From the NCBI GenBank assembly GCA_001829315.1, contig MIAY01000001.1:62001-126000 (forward strand): DNA of 64,000 nt. The letters are read 5' to 3'. The DNA comes from Spirochaetes bacterium GWE1_32_154 (GTDB lineage: Bacteria > Spirochaetota > GWE2-31-10). Below the pieces are notes generated by a model. The model worked only from the letters and a program-made list of their open reading frames with translations, searched no databases and was not told where the DNA came from. Of the stretch, positions 9,034-13,148 are shown piece after piece; within the stretch, counting starts at the first letter, position 1, and each line of letters starts with the position of its first letter. The position numbers and the translations under genes were made by a program.

Positions 9034-9074
9034 ATAACGCTATTGCAATTTCTTATACATAAATGGTGGATAAT

Positions 9075-11777
9075 ATGGCATTAAGCTGGAATGAGATAAA
9101 AGAAAGAGCTACAAAGTTCAGTACTACATGGAAAGATGCGTGTAATGAAGATTCTGAGGCTAAAGAATTCTTAGTGGGATTTTTTAATATTTTCGGCAGA
9201 GAAGAGAGAGTAGGAACATTTGAAAAACGGGTCAAAAAACTCGATACCGCCGATGGATATATTGATTATTTCTGGAAAGGAAATATCCTTGTTGAAATGA
9301 AAAGTCGAGGCAAAGATTTAGATAAAGCATATAAACAGGCAATGGATTACCTGCACGGAGTCCCTGATCACGAATTACCTCAAGTAGTTATGGTATCAGA
9401 CTTTGATAAATTTATTGTGTACCATTTGAATGATGAAAAAAAAAGTGAATTTAGAATACATGAACTTGTCAGTAATGTTGAAATGTTCGGATTTCTCGCG
9501 GGCTACCAAAAGAAAATCTATAAAGAGCAGGATCCGGTAAATATAAAAGCCGCTGAACACATGGGAAAACTTCATGATAGTTTAAAAGCAATCGGATATG
9601 TTGGACACGACCTTGAAGTGTATCTCGTGCGGTTATTGTTTTGCTTGTTTGCAGAAGATACCGGTATTTTTAATAAACAGCAGTTTCAGGATTATATCGA
9701 AGAGCGGACACATTGTGACGGTAGTGACCTTGCCGGAAGATTGCAGGAATTATTTCAGGTCTTAAATACTGATAATGATAAACGGTTTAAAAATATAGAT
9801 ATTCAACTCGGAGCGTTTCCATACATTAATGGAAAACTTTTTGAAGAGATGCTGCCCACTGCGAGTTTTGACAGTAAAATGAGAACAGCATTACTTGAAT
9901 GCTGCTACATTGACTGGAGTAAAATATCCCCCGCAATATTCGGATCGATGTTTCAAAGTGTTATGAATCCGGTCGAACGGCGTAATCTCGGTGCACATTA
10001 CACTTCTGAAAAAAATATAATGAAACTTATAAAACCCCTTTTTCTCGATGACTTATGGAAAGAGTTTGAGACGGTGAAAAATAATGAAAAAAAATTAGAA
10101 GCATTTCATATAAAACTAAGTACATTGAAATTCCTTGACCCGGCGTGCGGTTGCGGTAACTTTCTTATTATCTCGTATAGAGAATTACGGTTTTTAGAAC
10201 TTGAAGTAATTCGAAATCTTAATAAAGAGGGTCAGCGGTTTTTTAATATAAAGGATATGATACTTTTAACAATCGATCATTTCTTCGGTATCGAATATGA
10301 AGAGTTCCCTGCCAGAATCGCCGGTGTGGCTATGTGGCTCATGGATCACCAGATGAATATGCTTGTCAGTCAGGAATTCGGGGAGTATGTTTGTAATATC
10401 CCGCTGAAGAAATCGGCAACTATTGTTAATGGTAATGCGTTACAGATTGATTGGGAAACGGTTGTACCAAAAAATGAACTGTCGTATATACTCGGTAATC
10501 CGCCGTTTATAGGAAAACAATTACAAAATGAACAGCAGAAAGCGGATATGGAGCTGGTTTTCGGTAAAAGCTCCGGTACGGGTGTTCTTGACTATGTGAC
10601 CGCATGGTATATAAAAGCAGCACGATATATTCAGAATAGTACGATACAATGTGCTTTTGTTTCTACAAACTCAATTTCACAGGGTGAGCAAGTCGGTATT
10701 TTATGGGATATACTGTTTAAACAATTTACAATAAAAATCCACTTTGCACATCGTACTTTTAAATGGGGTAATGAAGCGAAAGGAAATGCGGCAGTACATG
10801 TCGTAATTATCGGATTTGCCAATTTTGATAGGGCTGAAAAGTATATCTATGAATATGAGGATATAAAAGGTGAACCGCACGAAATAAAGGTTAAGAATAT
10901 TAATCCTTATTTGGTTGAGGGGAGTGATTTTGCTTTAAATACAGTAAGAAAACCAATATGCAATGTACCAGAAATTTTATTTGGCAGTAAACTCGTAGAT
11001 GATGGAAATTTTCTTTTTACAGAAGAAGAAAAGATTGATTTTATTGACAAAGAACCAACTTCTAATAAGTTTTTTAGACTTATATTAAGTGGAGATGAGT
11101 TTCTTAATGGTAAAAAAAGATGGTGTTTATGGTTAAAGAACATATCTCCAAGTGAATTACGAGAAAGTAAATTGGTTACGGAAAGAGTAAAAAAGGTAAA
11201 AGAATTTAGGTTAAAAAGCACTAAGATACCTACTCAGAAAGCAGCAAATTTTCCAACATTATTTGCAGAACTTAGGCAACCAGAAAGTGATTTCCTTCTT
11301 GTTCCGCTTACATCATCAGAAAATAGAAATTATATACCTCTTGGTTTTTTTAGTAAGAATTATATCGTTACTAACAGTTGTTCCGTTATTGCAAATGCAA
11401 CTATTTTTCACTTTGGTATTCTTACTTCACTAATGCACATGTCTTGGGTAAGGAATACTTGCGGTCGCTTAAAAAGTGATTTCCGTTATTCAAATACGAT
11501 CGTCTACAATAACTTCCCTTGGCCTGAAAACCCGTCAGATGATAAGAAAAATGCTGTTGAAACTGCCGCACAAAAGGTGCTTGATGTGAGATTGAAATAT
11601 CCTGATTCCAGTCTTGCTGATTTATATGACCCAAACACGATGCCGGCTGATCTGGTGAAAGCTCATAATGAGCTTGATAAAGCGGTTGACGGTTGTTACC
11701 GGAAAGAACCGTTTAAAAGCGAGGCGGCGAGGATGGAGTTTTTGTTTGAGTTGTATGAGAAGTATGTGGGGAAGTAG
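9075..11777 (+). CDS. MmeI-family (type IIL) restriction-modification enzyme
   Basis: A single-chain endonuclease-methyltransferase of about 900 residues, close to MmeI's 919 and recognisably similar throughout. The N-terminus has the nuclease motif D-X9-E-X-K (D68, E78, K80, numbered from the in-frame ATG at 9063). The methyltransferase has the SAM motif DPACGCGNFL and the adenine-target motif GNPPFIG, then a target-recognition and C-terminal domain. I prefer the ATG at 9075 (MALSWNEI, matching family N-termini) because GGTGGA stands 5 bases upstream; the ATG at 9063 has no such site. MmeI-type enzymes methylate one strand of an asymmetric site and cut about 20 bases away; the site here cannot be read by eye. 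Its last 174 bases are repeated downstream of the next gene. Confidence 0.9.
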   Translation: MALSWNEIKERATKFSTTWKDACNEDSEAKEFLVGFFNIFGREERVGTFEKRVKKLDTADGYIDYFWKGNILVEMKSRGKDLDKAYKQAMDYLHGVPDHELPQVVMVSDFDKFIVYHLNDEKKSEFRIHELVSNVEMFGFLAGYQKKIYKEQDPVNIKAAEHMGKLHDSLKAIGYVGHDLEVYLVRLLFCLFAEDTGIFNKQQFQDYIEERTHCDGSDLAGRLQELFQVLNTDNDKRFKNIDIQLGAFPYINGKLFEEMLPTASFDSKMRTALLECCYIDWSKISPAIFGSMFQSVMNPVERRNLGAHYTSEKNIMKLIKPLFLDDLWKEFETVKNNEKKLEAFHIKLSTLKFLDPACGCGNFLIISYRELRFLELEVIRNLNKEGQRFFNIKDMILLTIDHFFGIEYEEFPARIAGVAMWLMDHQMNMLVSQEFGEYVCNIPLKKSATIVNGNALQIDWETVVPKNELSYILGNPPFIGKQLQNEQQKADMELVFGKSSGTGVLDYVTAWYIKAARYIQNSTIQCAFVSTNSISQGEQVGILWDILFKQFTIKIHFAHRTFKWGNEAKGNAAVHVVIIGFANFDRAEKYIYEYEDIKGEPHEIKVKNINPYLVEGSDFALNTVRKPICNVPEILFGSKLVDDGNFLFTEEEKIDFIDKEPTSNKFFRLILSGDEFLNGKKRWCLWLKNISPSELRESKLVTERVKKVKEFRLKSTKIPTQKAANFPTLFAELRQPESDFLLVPLTSSENRNYIPLGFFSKNYIVTNSCSVIANATIFHFGILTSLMHMSWVRNTCGRLKSDFRYSNTIVYNNFPWPENPSDDKKNAVETAAQKVLDVRLKYPDSSLADLYDPNTMPADLVKAHNELDKAVDGCYRKEPFKSEAARMEFLFELYEKYVGK
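11600..11773 (+). repeat. 174-bp direct repeat, copy 1 (inside mmeI-like 3' end)
   Basis: This stretch codes for the last 57 or so residues of the MmeI-like protein and is repeated at 12853-13026 with no difference that I can find. The copies bracket 1079 bases containing the DUF1016 gene. Sequence diverges immediately outside both ends. Confidence 0.9.
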
Positions 11778-11815
11778 GTAAAGAAACGAAAAATCGAAAG
11801 GAGTATTTTACGAAT

Positions 11816-12832
11816 ATGAGCCACTATTTAACCGATTTGGAATATAAAGAGTTTATAAAGTCAATTAAGCAAAATATTATTAGTGCACGACAAAAAGCCA
11901 TTAAGAGCGTAAATACTGAACTTATTGTGCTTTATTTTAATATTGGAAAAGAGATTGTATCGAAACAAAAGATATCTCATTGGGGTGATGATTTAATAGG
12001 TCAAATTGAAAAAGACTTAAAGGCTGATTTTCAGGACTTGACTGGTTTTTCAAGAACGAATCTTTTTTATATGAAGAAGTTTTTTCTTTTTTTTGAACAA
12101 AACGGATTTGTCCCACAGACTGTGGGACAAATCCCATGGGGACACATACGGTTAATTTTAGATAAGATCAAAGATATAAACGAAGCTCTTTTTTATGTAA
12201 AAGAAACAATAGAAAATTCCTGGTCCCGCGTTATTTTAGATCACCAGATTGATTTAAAATTATATTCAAGGCAGGGAAAGTTGCCAAATAATTTTAAGGT
12301 GACAATAAATGATACAAATATCGAATTAATAGAAAATTGTTTTAAAGAAAGCTATATTCTTGATTTTCTGAATTTATCAAAACAGAACAAAGAAAGCGAC
12401 CTGGAAAAAGCATTGATTAATAATATTACTACTTTTCTAATGGAGTTGGGAAAAGGGTTTGCTTTTGTCGGAAAACAATATAAACTCATTGTAGGTAATA
12501 AAGAATTTTTTATCGATCTATTATTTTACAATTATATTCTAAAAAGATTTATAGTTATTGAATTAAAAACTTGCGAGTTTAAGCCCGAACATTTTGGTCA
12601 AATTAGTTTTTATGTAACAGCAGTTGATAATGATATAAAAAGAGACGATGATAAAGAAACTATTGGATTATTGATCTGTAAATCAAAAGACACTACAGTT
12701 GTTGAATATGCATTATCAAATAATAAAAAGCCTTTGGGGGTTGCTGAATATAAATTTACTCAATTAAATAATGAATTGATTGCATATTTACCGTCAGAAC
12801 TTGAGTTAGTAGAAATACTAAAAAATAATTAG
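11816..12832 (+). CDS. DUF1016/YhcG-family PD-(D/E)XK nuclease
   Basis: The 338-residue protein has an N-terminal winged-helix-like DUF1016 domain (about residues 8-155, with the family motif QIPWGH at 105-110). A C-terminal YhcG-type nuclease fold follows, with D234 (FIDLLF) and E249-L-K251 (IELK) as catalytic residues and the conserved GQISFYV helix. Such genes are widespread as accessory genes in restriction and defence islands; the molecular role is not settled. A GGAG site stands 12 bases before the ATG, a rather long spacing. The gene sits exactly between two copies of the mmeI-like tail, so it seems to have entered the locus by recombination. A 12-bp perfect hairpin lies inside the coding region at 12106-12132. 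Confidence 0.85.
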   Translation: MSHYLTDLEYKEFIKSIKQNIISARQKAIKSVNTELIVLYFNIGKEIVSKQKISHWGDDLIGQIEKDLKADFQDLTGFSRTNLFYMKKFFLFFEQNGFVPQTVGQIPWGHIRLILDKIKDINEALFYVKETIENSWSRVILDHQIDLKLYSRQGKLPNNFKVTINDTNIELIENCFKESYILDFLNLSKQNKESDLEKALINNITTFLMELGKGFAFVGKQYKLIVGNKEFFIDLLFYNYILKRFIVIELKTCEFKPEHFGQISFYVTAVDNDIKRDDDKETIGLLICKSKDTTVVEYALSNNKKPLGVAEYKFTQLNNELIAYLPSELELVEILKNN

Positions 12833-12852
12833 AAGAACGTTAGAGTTTCTTT

Positions 12853-13026
12853 TCCTGATTCCAGTCTTGCTGATTTATATGACCCAAACACGATGCCGGC
12901 TGATCTGGTGAAAGCTCATAATGAGCTTGATAAAGCGGTTGACGGTTGTTACCGGAAAGAACCGTTTAAAAGCGAGGCGGCGAGGATGGAGTTTTTGTTT
13001 GAGTTGTATGAGAAGTATGTGGGGAA
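12853..13026 (+). repeat. 174-bp direct repeat, copy 2 (downstream of DUF1016 gene)
   Basis: Identical by eye to 11600-11773. The copy includes rare G+C-rich stretches such as AGCGAGGCGGCGAGGATGG, so the match cannot be a composition effect. Confidence 0.9.
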
Positions 13027-13030
13027 ATGA
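12853..13030 (+). pseudogene. Orphan C-terminal fragment of an mmeI-like gene
   Basis: The second repeat copy stays open in the mmeI frame (PDSSLADLYD to YEKYVGK) and ends in TGA at 13028-13030, where copy 1 ends in TAG. It has no start codon or upstream domain, so it cannot make an enzyme. It either preserves the original downstream junction of the mmeI-like gene or is the remnant of a second paralogue. Confidence 0.8.
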
Positions 13031-13031
13031 T

Positions 13032-13148
13032 ATGAACTTTGAGAATGAAAAAGCAAAAAATGTATATATGACTGTATTAAAAAAAATGACTGCTGAGGAA
13101 AAATTATTAAATAATTGGTGTGTAAAACTTGGAGTGACCGATCTGTGA
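13032..13148 (+). CDS. Small 38-residue hypothetical protein
   Basis: An ATG 1 base after the stop of the mmeI-tail fragment opens a 38-codon frame, preceded at 7 bases by GGGGA, which is itself part of the repeat. The product is charged and helical-looking (AEEKLLNNWCVKLGVTDL at the end) and I do not recognise it. It may be the truncated start of a gene that once followed mmeI, since translation stops just before a repeat element. Whether it is expressed is uncertain. Confidence 0.35.
   Translation: MNFENEKAKNVYMTVLKKMTAEEKLLNNWCVKLGVTDL

What the first reader, a model, noticed from the sequence alone, without database searches (positions are those of the whole stretch)
11600..13026. Perfect 174-bp direct repeat flanking a DUF1016 nuclease gene in an MmeI-type locus
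The 3' end of the mmeI-like gene (11600-11773) is duplicated without visible change at 12853-13026, bracketing the DUF1016 gene. It looks as if a unit made of DUF1016 plus a fresh mmeI tail was inserted at the gene end, keeping the enzyme intact, or as if tandem mmeI-like genes recombined. Recombination between the repeats would delete the DUF1016 gene cleanly, so the gene may be a switchable cargo. Lack of divergence points to a recent event.
Basis: partly seen in the sequence, partly recalled or inferred. Interest (0 to 1): 0.65.

Follow-up and report, generated by a model that had tools for sequence, protein, structure and literature searches.

The report
Nuclease gene bracketed by mmeI tails
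A possible phage-defence nuclease gene sits right behind a restriction-enzyme gene with a copy of that gene's last 174 letters on its far side; the same arrangement recurs in many related bacteria with other guest genes, and it suggests that such genes enter restriction operons together with a replacement gene ending, so the host gene stays intact.

Summary
The last 174 bp of an MmeI-type IIG gene (11600-11773) recur without a mismatch at 12853-13026 and bracket one intact DUF1016/YhcG nuclease gene (11816-12832). The repeat occurs nowhere else in the genome.

It is not a one-off. Among DUF1016 genes from the same phylum, 14 of 100 are tightly bracketed by direct repeats, against 3 of 332 other ORFs in the surveyed loci. 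In at least 10 of the 14 the repeat is the coding end or start of a neighbouring gene, mostly HsdM, HsdS, HsdR, Mod or IIG. The effect is not specific to DUF1016: AlbA_2 genes (6/42), more weakly RhuM (3/48), and single Fic and TIR genes show it too.

In 17 such repeat pairs the two copies differ mainly at synonymous sites (147 vs 90 changes, pN/pS 0.16). So they diverged as functional alleles, not by decay after a duplication. Best reading: the guest arrives attached to a foreign or allelic end of the host gene, which replaces the resident end; the resident end stays behind as a relic. The window's two tails, AAG-TAG and AAA-TGA, both end in VGK-stop, as this predicts. Excision or switching was not tested.

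Side finding: DUF1016 genes carry a private 25-bp palindrome at a fixed codon position.

The parts
9063..11777 (+). Host gene: MmeI-type IIG restriction-modification enzyme, 904 aa, intact
   Evidence: MmeI_N, MmeI_hel, MmeI_Mtase, MmeI_TRD, MmeI_C all over the cut-off; PADLOC REase_MTase_IIG 1214 bits over residues 6-902
11600..11773 (+). Repeat copy 1: 3' coding end of the intact mmeI-like gene; ends ...GTG GGG AAG TAG
11774..12852 (+). Inserted segment between the two copies (1079 bp)
   Evidence: boundaries of the perfect repeat
11816..12832 (+). Guest gene: DUF1016/YhcG protein, 338 aa, PD-(D/E)XK nuclease with conserved D234, E249, K251 (PADLOC: candidate phage-defence protein PDC-S02)
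   Evidence: Pfam YhcG_C 194 bits and DUF1016_N 140 bits; PADLOC PDC-S02 430 bits; D234 and K251 invariant in 25 homologs; the predicted C-terminal half best matches NucS/EndoMS nucleases
12107..12131 (+). Perfect 25-bp palindrome inside the DUF1016 gene (side finding)
12853..13026 (+). Repeat copy 2: untranslated relic of the mmeI 3' end, identical over 174 bp; continues AAA TGA (stop at 13028-13030), read as the original gene end
13032..13148 (+). 38-codon ORF starting directly behind the relic stop; possibly the stub of the gene that originally followed mmeI
   Evidence: translation; no significant Pfam match

Best explanation
The DUF1016 gene is a guest that entered the 3' end of the mmeI-like gene as a unit consisting of an mmeI 3' end plus the DUF1016 gene. 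Homologous pairing in the shared tail joined the resident gene to the incoming tail, so the enzyme kept a complete C-terminus (now ending AAG TAG), and the original tail (ending AAA TGA) was pushed 1253 bp downstream as an untranslated relic. The same process has put DUF1016, AlbA_2, RhuM, Fic and TIR genes at the ends or starts of restriction-modification genes many times. Shown: the repeat, its coding nature, its recurrence and enrichment, the variety of guests and hosts, and the synonymous bias between copies. Inferred: the direction of the event, homologous recombination as the joining step, and that the window is a recent case of the same class. Not shown: how the far junction forms, and whether the guest is ever excised.
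For: Perfect tail repeat. Tight bracketing by direct repeats in 14/100 DUF1016 genes, 6/42 AlbA_2 and 3/48 RhuM against 3/332 other ORFs in the surveyed loci; Fisher p = 2e-7, 9e-5, 0.03. Bracketing repeats are coding ends of HsdM (L108, L144, L186), a IIG enzyme (L133) and type III Mod (L141), or coding starts of HsdS (L139) and HsdR (L151). 17 repeat pairs hold 147 synonymous against 90 nonsynonymous changes, pN/pS 0.16; p = 3e-42 against neutrality and 3e-20 against a relic that is neutral since insertion. Stacked insertions: two hsdM tail relics of different length behind one hsdM in L338. Empty sites: type III mod and res are contiguous in L345, L348 and L351, but hold two DUF1016 genes between them in L141. 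In the window both tails end VGK-stop although the identity has already ended; a random 4-mer does this in 3.4% of cases.
Against: The window's own copies are identical over 174 bp, so its tails alone cannot tell a foreign end from a plain duplication; the VGK-stop argument is modest. No relative close enough to show the empty mmeI site or the donor was found. 86% of DUF1016 genes show no bracketing repeat, and a plasmid hsdM-DUF1016-hsdS locus has clean overlaps and no repeat, so other routes or erased repeats are needed. At least four of the 14 DUF1016 cases (L104, L111, L116, L150) are non-coding or ambiguous repeats; AlbA_2 case L218 is a tandem paralogue and most other AlbA_2 repeats are not clearly coding.
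Confidence: 0.6

Rival explanations
1. Insertion with long target duplication in the strict sense (as proposed for RM systems in Helicobacter): the incoming DUF1016 gene duplicated 174 bp of the resident mmeI tail at insertion, and both copies come from one target.
For: Geometry and length fit; copies are 100% identical in the window. The pattern was described for RM genes (Nobusato 2000 and Furuta 2010, as cited in PMC3031569 and PMC1643837).
Against: Across 17 pairs the copies differ as selected alleles, pN/pS 0.16, not as a decayed duplicate. Both window tails end in VGK-stop with different bases.
Confidence: 0.25
2. Tandem mmeI-like genes with DUF1016 between them, followed by deletion of all but the end of the second gene and gene conversion of its tail.
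For: Two mmeI genes can occur in one genome (G011 has two). Both tails look like real gene ends.
Against: Relics are always short gene ends, at 3' or 5' sides of many different RM genes, and are stacked in L338 and L151; repeated tandem duplication plus deletion each time is unlikely.
Confidence: 0.08
3. DUF1016-driven homing: the nuclease cuts at the RM gene end and its gene is copied in with co-converted flanks, like fungal mitochondrial endonuclease ORFs.
For: Active-site residues conserved, nuclease fold, closely similar geometry in fungal mtDNA (PMC3630166).
Against: AlbA_2, RhuM, Fic and TIR genes show the pattern too, so a DUF1016-specific driver is not needed.
Confidence: 0.12
4. Assembly artefact: two strain variants merged by the assembler.
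For: The genome is in 43 contigs; 174 bp is of the order of short-read k-mers; reads were not available.
Against: Different sequences at both ends of both copies; the same architecture in (near-)closed genomes.
Confidence: 0.05

Closest known systems
Insertion with long target duplication of RM systems (Nobusato et al. 2000; Furuta et al. 2010, via PMC3031569 and PMC1643837)
   Same: A defence gene inserted without a visible transposase, flanked by long variable direct repeats of resident sequence
   Different: Here the inserted unit is a single guest gene inside an RM locus, the repeat is mostly an RM gene end, and in the class the two copies are diverged alleles rather than one duplicated target
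Fungal mitochondrial mobile endonuclease ORFs that carry a foreign C-terminal end (atp6, atp9, cox2, nad3; PMC3630166)
   Same: Order core gene - incoming end - guest ORF - displaced native end; the two ends are diverged with protein sequence conserved
   Different: Bacterial RM genes as hosts; guests include non-nucleases; 5' ends (starts) are replaced as well as 3' ends; mobility not shown
Defence genes embedded in RM operons (TgvAB in the V. cholerae type I operon, PMC11411939; PrrC in EcoprrI, PMC12707154)
   Same: Guest genes between hsd genes with the host operon kept
   Different: No duplicated gene end was mentioned in the passages read; the present data suggest how such embedding happens

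Membership tests
DUF1016/YhcG family | DUF1016_N and YhcG_C domains | tested here: met
   140 and 194 bits, both over cut-off
DUF1016/YhcG family | PD-(D/E)XK active site | tested here: met
   D234 and K251 invariant in 25 homologs, E249 present; C-terminal fold matches NucS/EndoMS. Activity not tested
MmeI-like type IIG RM enzyme | N-terminal nuclease, helical spacer, methyltransferase, TRD, C-terminal domain in one chain | tested here: met
   all five MmeI Pfam domains
Insertion with long target duplication | Long direct repeats of resident sequence flank the insert | tested here: met
   174 bp, 100%
Insertion with long target duplication | Both copies derive from one target by duplication at insertion | tested here: inconclusive
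   class as a whole: no, pN/pS 0.16; window copies identical, but both end VGK-stop with different bases
Insertion with long target duplication | Uninserted allele with a single copy in a close relative | tested here: inconclusive
   No close relative among 60 relatives searched; empty sites only for other hosts and at greater distance
Foreign gene-end plus mobile ORF (fungal mORF type) | Incoming end and displaced native end are diverged alleles | tested here: inconclusive
   met for 17 related loci; in the window only the last codon and the stop differ
Foreign gene-end plus mobile ORF (fungal mORF type) | Endonuclease-driven mobility | not testable with these tools
   needs in vivo assay; non-nuclease guests argue against it as a general rule
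Integron gene cassette | attC-type recombination sites flank the gene | tested here: not met
   flanking repeats are in-frame mmeI coding sequence, unique in the genome

The most novel reading that the evidence does not exclude
Each DUF1016 gene carries, at a fixed codon position, its own private 25-bp DNA palindrome (12107-12131 here) whose sequence changes between homologs while the symmetry is kept. This is the site the protein recognises, and recognition of its own gene is part of how the nuclease is controlled or moves into RM operons.
Probability: 0.2. Interest if true: 0.85.

Novelty: new variant of a known kind. Interest (0 to 1): 0.6.

Why it matters
Single defence genes are often found embedded inside RM operons, but how they get in without breaking the host genes is not settled. 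A unit that brings its own replacement for the host gene's end would explain this, would predict which loci can be entered (those sharing a gene end), and leaves a readable scar (the relic end) by which recent insertions can be found across genomes. The relic is also a homologous handle through which the guest could be lost cleanly or passed to another RM locus.

Tried and rejected
(1) DUF1016-specific homing as the sole driver: rejected as sufficient because AlbA_2, RhuM, Fic and TIR guests show the same scar. (2) Integron cassette: repeats are coding ends, not attC. (3) E. coli K-12 yhcG as a strain-level empty-site test: no long flanking repeat; not informative. (4) Plasmid DUF1016 genes: nine of ten non-Moraxella loci checked with blastn or the repeat finder showed no long bracketing repeat and the tenth (L310) was not checked; Moraxella genes are bracketed by short palindromes instead. 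(5) Searching for empty sites of L108, L116 and L141 in sister genomes: no clean identical empty site, but it uncovered stacked relics (L338, L339) and contiguous mod-res loci. (7) Furuta 2010 not held; its content is taken from papers that cite it. (8) No solved structure by sequence.

Full report
Observation. The window holds an intact MmeI-type IIG enzyme gene (9063-11777) followed by a DUF1016/YhcG gene (11816-12832). The last 174 bp of the coding region, 11600-11773, recur with no mismatch at 12853-13026. No second copy exists in the rest of the genome. The identity ends one base before the end of the last sense codon in both copies, yet both continue as lysine plus stop: AAG TAG in the intact gene, AAA TGA in the downstream copy. 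In this window a random 4-mer reads that way in 3.4% of positions, so both copies look like real gene ends rather than one gene end plus an arbitrary junction.

Recurrence. An MmeI_C search over 393 genomes of the phylum found other second or lone tails. In L057 a Fic-family gene (recognised by reading the translation, not by a profile search) lies between an mmeI-like gene and a 76%-identical tail relic; in L054 an unrelated gene lies between two tails about 90% identical. I then pulled DUF1016 (PF17761), RhuM (PF13310) and AlbA_2 (PF04326) loci and asked by one rule, for each gene up to 600 codons, whether a direct repeat of at least 36 bp lies within 200 bp of both ends. DUF1016 14/100, AlbA_2 6/42, RhuM 3/48, all other ORFs in the surveyed loci 3/332 (Fisher p 2e-7, 9e-5, 0.03). 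One of the three controls, a TIR gene, is itself a guest between two HsdS tails. At least four DUF1016 cases and several AlbA_2 cases are non-coding or ambiguous repeats and one AlbA_2 case is a tandem paralogue; the clear coding-end cases alone (about 10 DUF1016 genes) keep the contrast.

What the repeats are. They are 3' ends of HsdM, HsdS, type III Mod, IIG enzymes and MmeI, or 5' starts of HsdS, HsdR and other genes. In L151 RhuM and DUF1016 are stacked in front of hsdR, and the hsdR start is present in extra copies; the DUF1016 gene there begins with the ribosome-binding region and first codons of hsdR. In L338 one hsdM is followed by two hsdM tail relics of different length. Guest-free versions of a type III locus, mod directly followed by res, exist in L345, L348 and L351, whereas L141 has two DUF1016 genes between them. 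A Citrobacter plasmid has hsdM-DUF1016-hsdS, and Klebsiella plasmids about 75% identical have hsdM-hsdS alone.

Duplication or replacement? If the second copy were a duplicate of the resident end made at insertion, it would be free of selection afterwards and the pair would show many amino-acid changes. In 17 pairs I counted 147 synonymous and 90 nonsynonymous differences, pN/pS 0.16. This rejects neutrality (p = 3e-42) and also the case in which only the relic is neutral (p = 3e-20). The two ends therefore diverged as working gene ends in different lineages before they came together. The simplest model is that the guest arrives joined to a host-gene end from a relative, this end replaces the resident end by homologous pairing, and the resident end remains downstream (or upstream, for starts). 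In the window the replacing end would differ from the resident one only in the last codon and stop, which fits a closely related donor or a crossover close to the stop. This last step is inference.

Comparison with the known. Insertion with long target duplication was described for RM systems in Helicobacter (Nobusato 2000; cited in PMC1643837 and PMC3031569). Fungal mitochondrial endonuclease ORFs carry a foreign C-terminal end that replaces the native one, which stays downstream (PMC3630166); that is the closest match in structure. Defence genes embedded in RM operons are known (PMC11411939, PMC12707154), but I found no description of the gene-end scar in the passages read. Ten papers in the library mention DUF1016; judged by title and abstract, none is about this.

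Guest function. The protein keeps the PD-(D/E)XK residues (D234, E249, K251). The model (mean pLDDT 81, pTM 0.50) places a helical N-terminal domain before a nuclease domain that matches NucS/EndoMS. It is listed as defence candidate PDC-S02. No activity was tested.

Side finding. DUF1016 genes contain a perfect or near-perfect palindrome of 25 bp (13 pairs on each side in most) just before the codons of the W-[GST]-H motif. In 45 of 86 genes it is at one fixed offset and in 22 more at other nearby offsets. With the fixed offset alone, 607 of 1032 cells are Watson-Crick pairs against 354 +/- 13 after shuffling between genes, 0 of 2000 shuffles reaching it; the best unrelated centre gives 36% pairs against 59%. 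The pair types change freely (up to four types per position), and pairing stops abruptly after pair 13. G-T mismatches are as frequent as A-C mismatches (15 vs 14), which favours a DNA dyad over an RNA hairpin. The window's palindrome and that of L108 each occur only once in their genomes. A library search for YhcG with palindrome found nothing evidently about this, by title and abstract.

Verdict. The event is one member of a recurrent class in which guest genes sit at RM gene ends with a duplicated end. Within the class the evidence favours replacement by a foreign or allelic end over plain target duplication. For this window alone the choice between the two is open, and switchability is untested.

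Noticed in passing
window 12107-12131; same position in about three quarters of 86 DUF1016 genes: A 25-bp palindrome at a fixed codon position inside DUF1016 genes, with sequence varying between homologs while symmetry is kept; unique in the genome in the two genomes tested.
   Followed up: partly
L175 6129-6233 and 6969-6995 (E. coli K-12 yhcG): yhcG has three 39-bp-spaced palindromic repeats inside the gene and a fourth copy directly behind the gene.
   Followed up: no
L176, L177, L178 (Moraxella osloensis plasmids): DUF1016 genes are bracketed by short palindromic repeats, AACTGTGGCAAATTGCCACACTTT, directly before and behind the gene.
   Followed up: no
window 11780-11787 and 12845-12852: The insert has an 8-bp inverted match near its two ends (AAAGAAAC / GTTTCTTT); it may be chance.
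   Followed up: no
L151: Two stacked guests (RhuM, DUF1016) in front of hsdR, each associated with a copy of the hsdR start; DUF1016 has taken over hsdR's translation start region.
   Followed up: partly
L108:860-1606 (minus strand): A TIR-domain gene bracketed by two HsdS tails, another guest family.
   Followed up: no
L340 4086-5224, L343 13007-13654: Small genes that read as GIY-YIG nucleases, directly upstream of hsdS in relatives of L108, possible further guests (family assigned by eye).
   Followed up: no
L116 4170-4308 and 5643-5781: A 139-bp, 99% identical non-coding repeat around a DUF1016 gene; part of the region matches other places in the same genome, so it may be a dispersed element.
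   Followed up: partly
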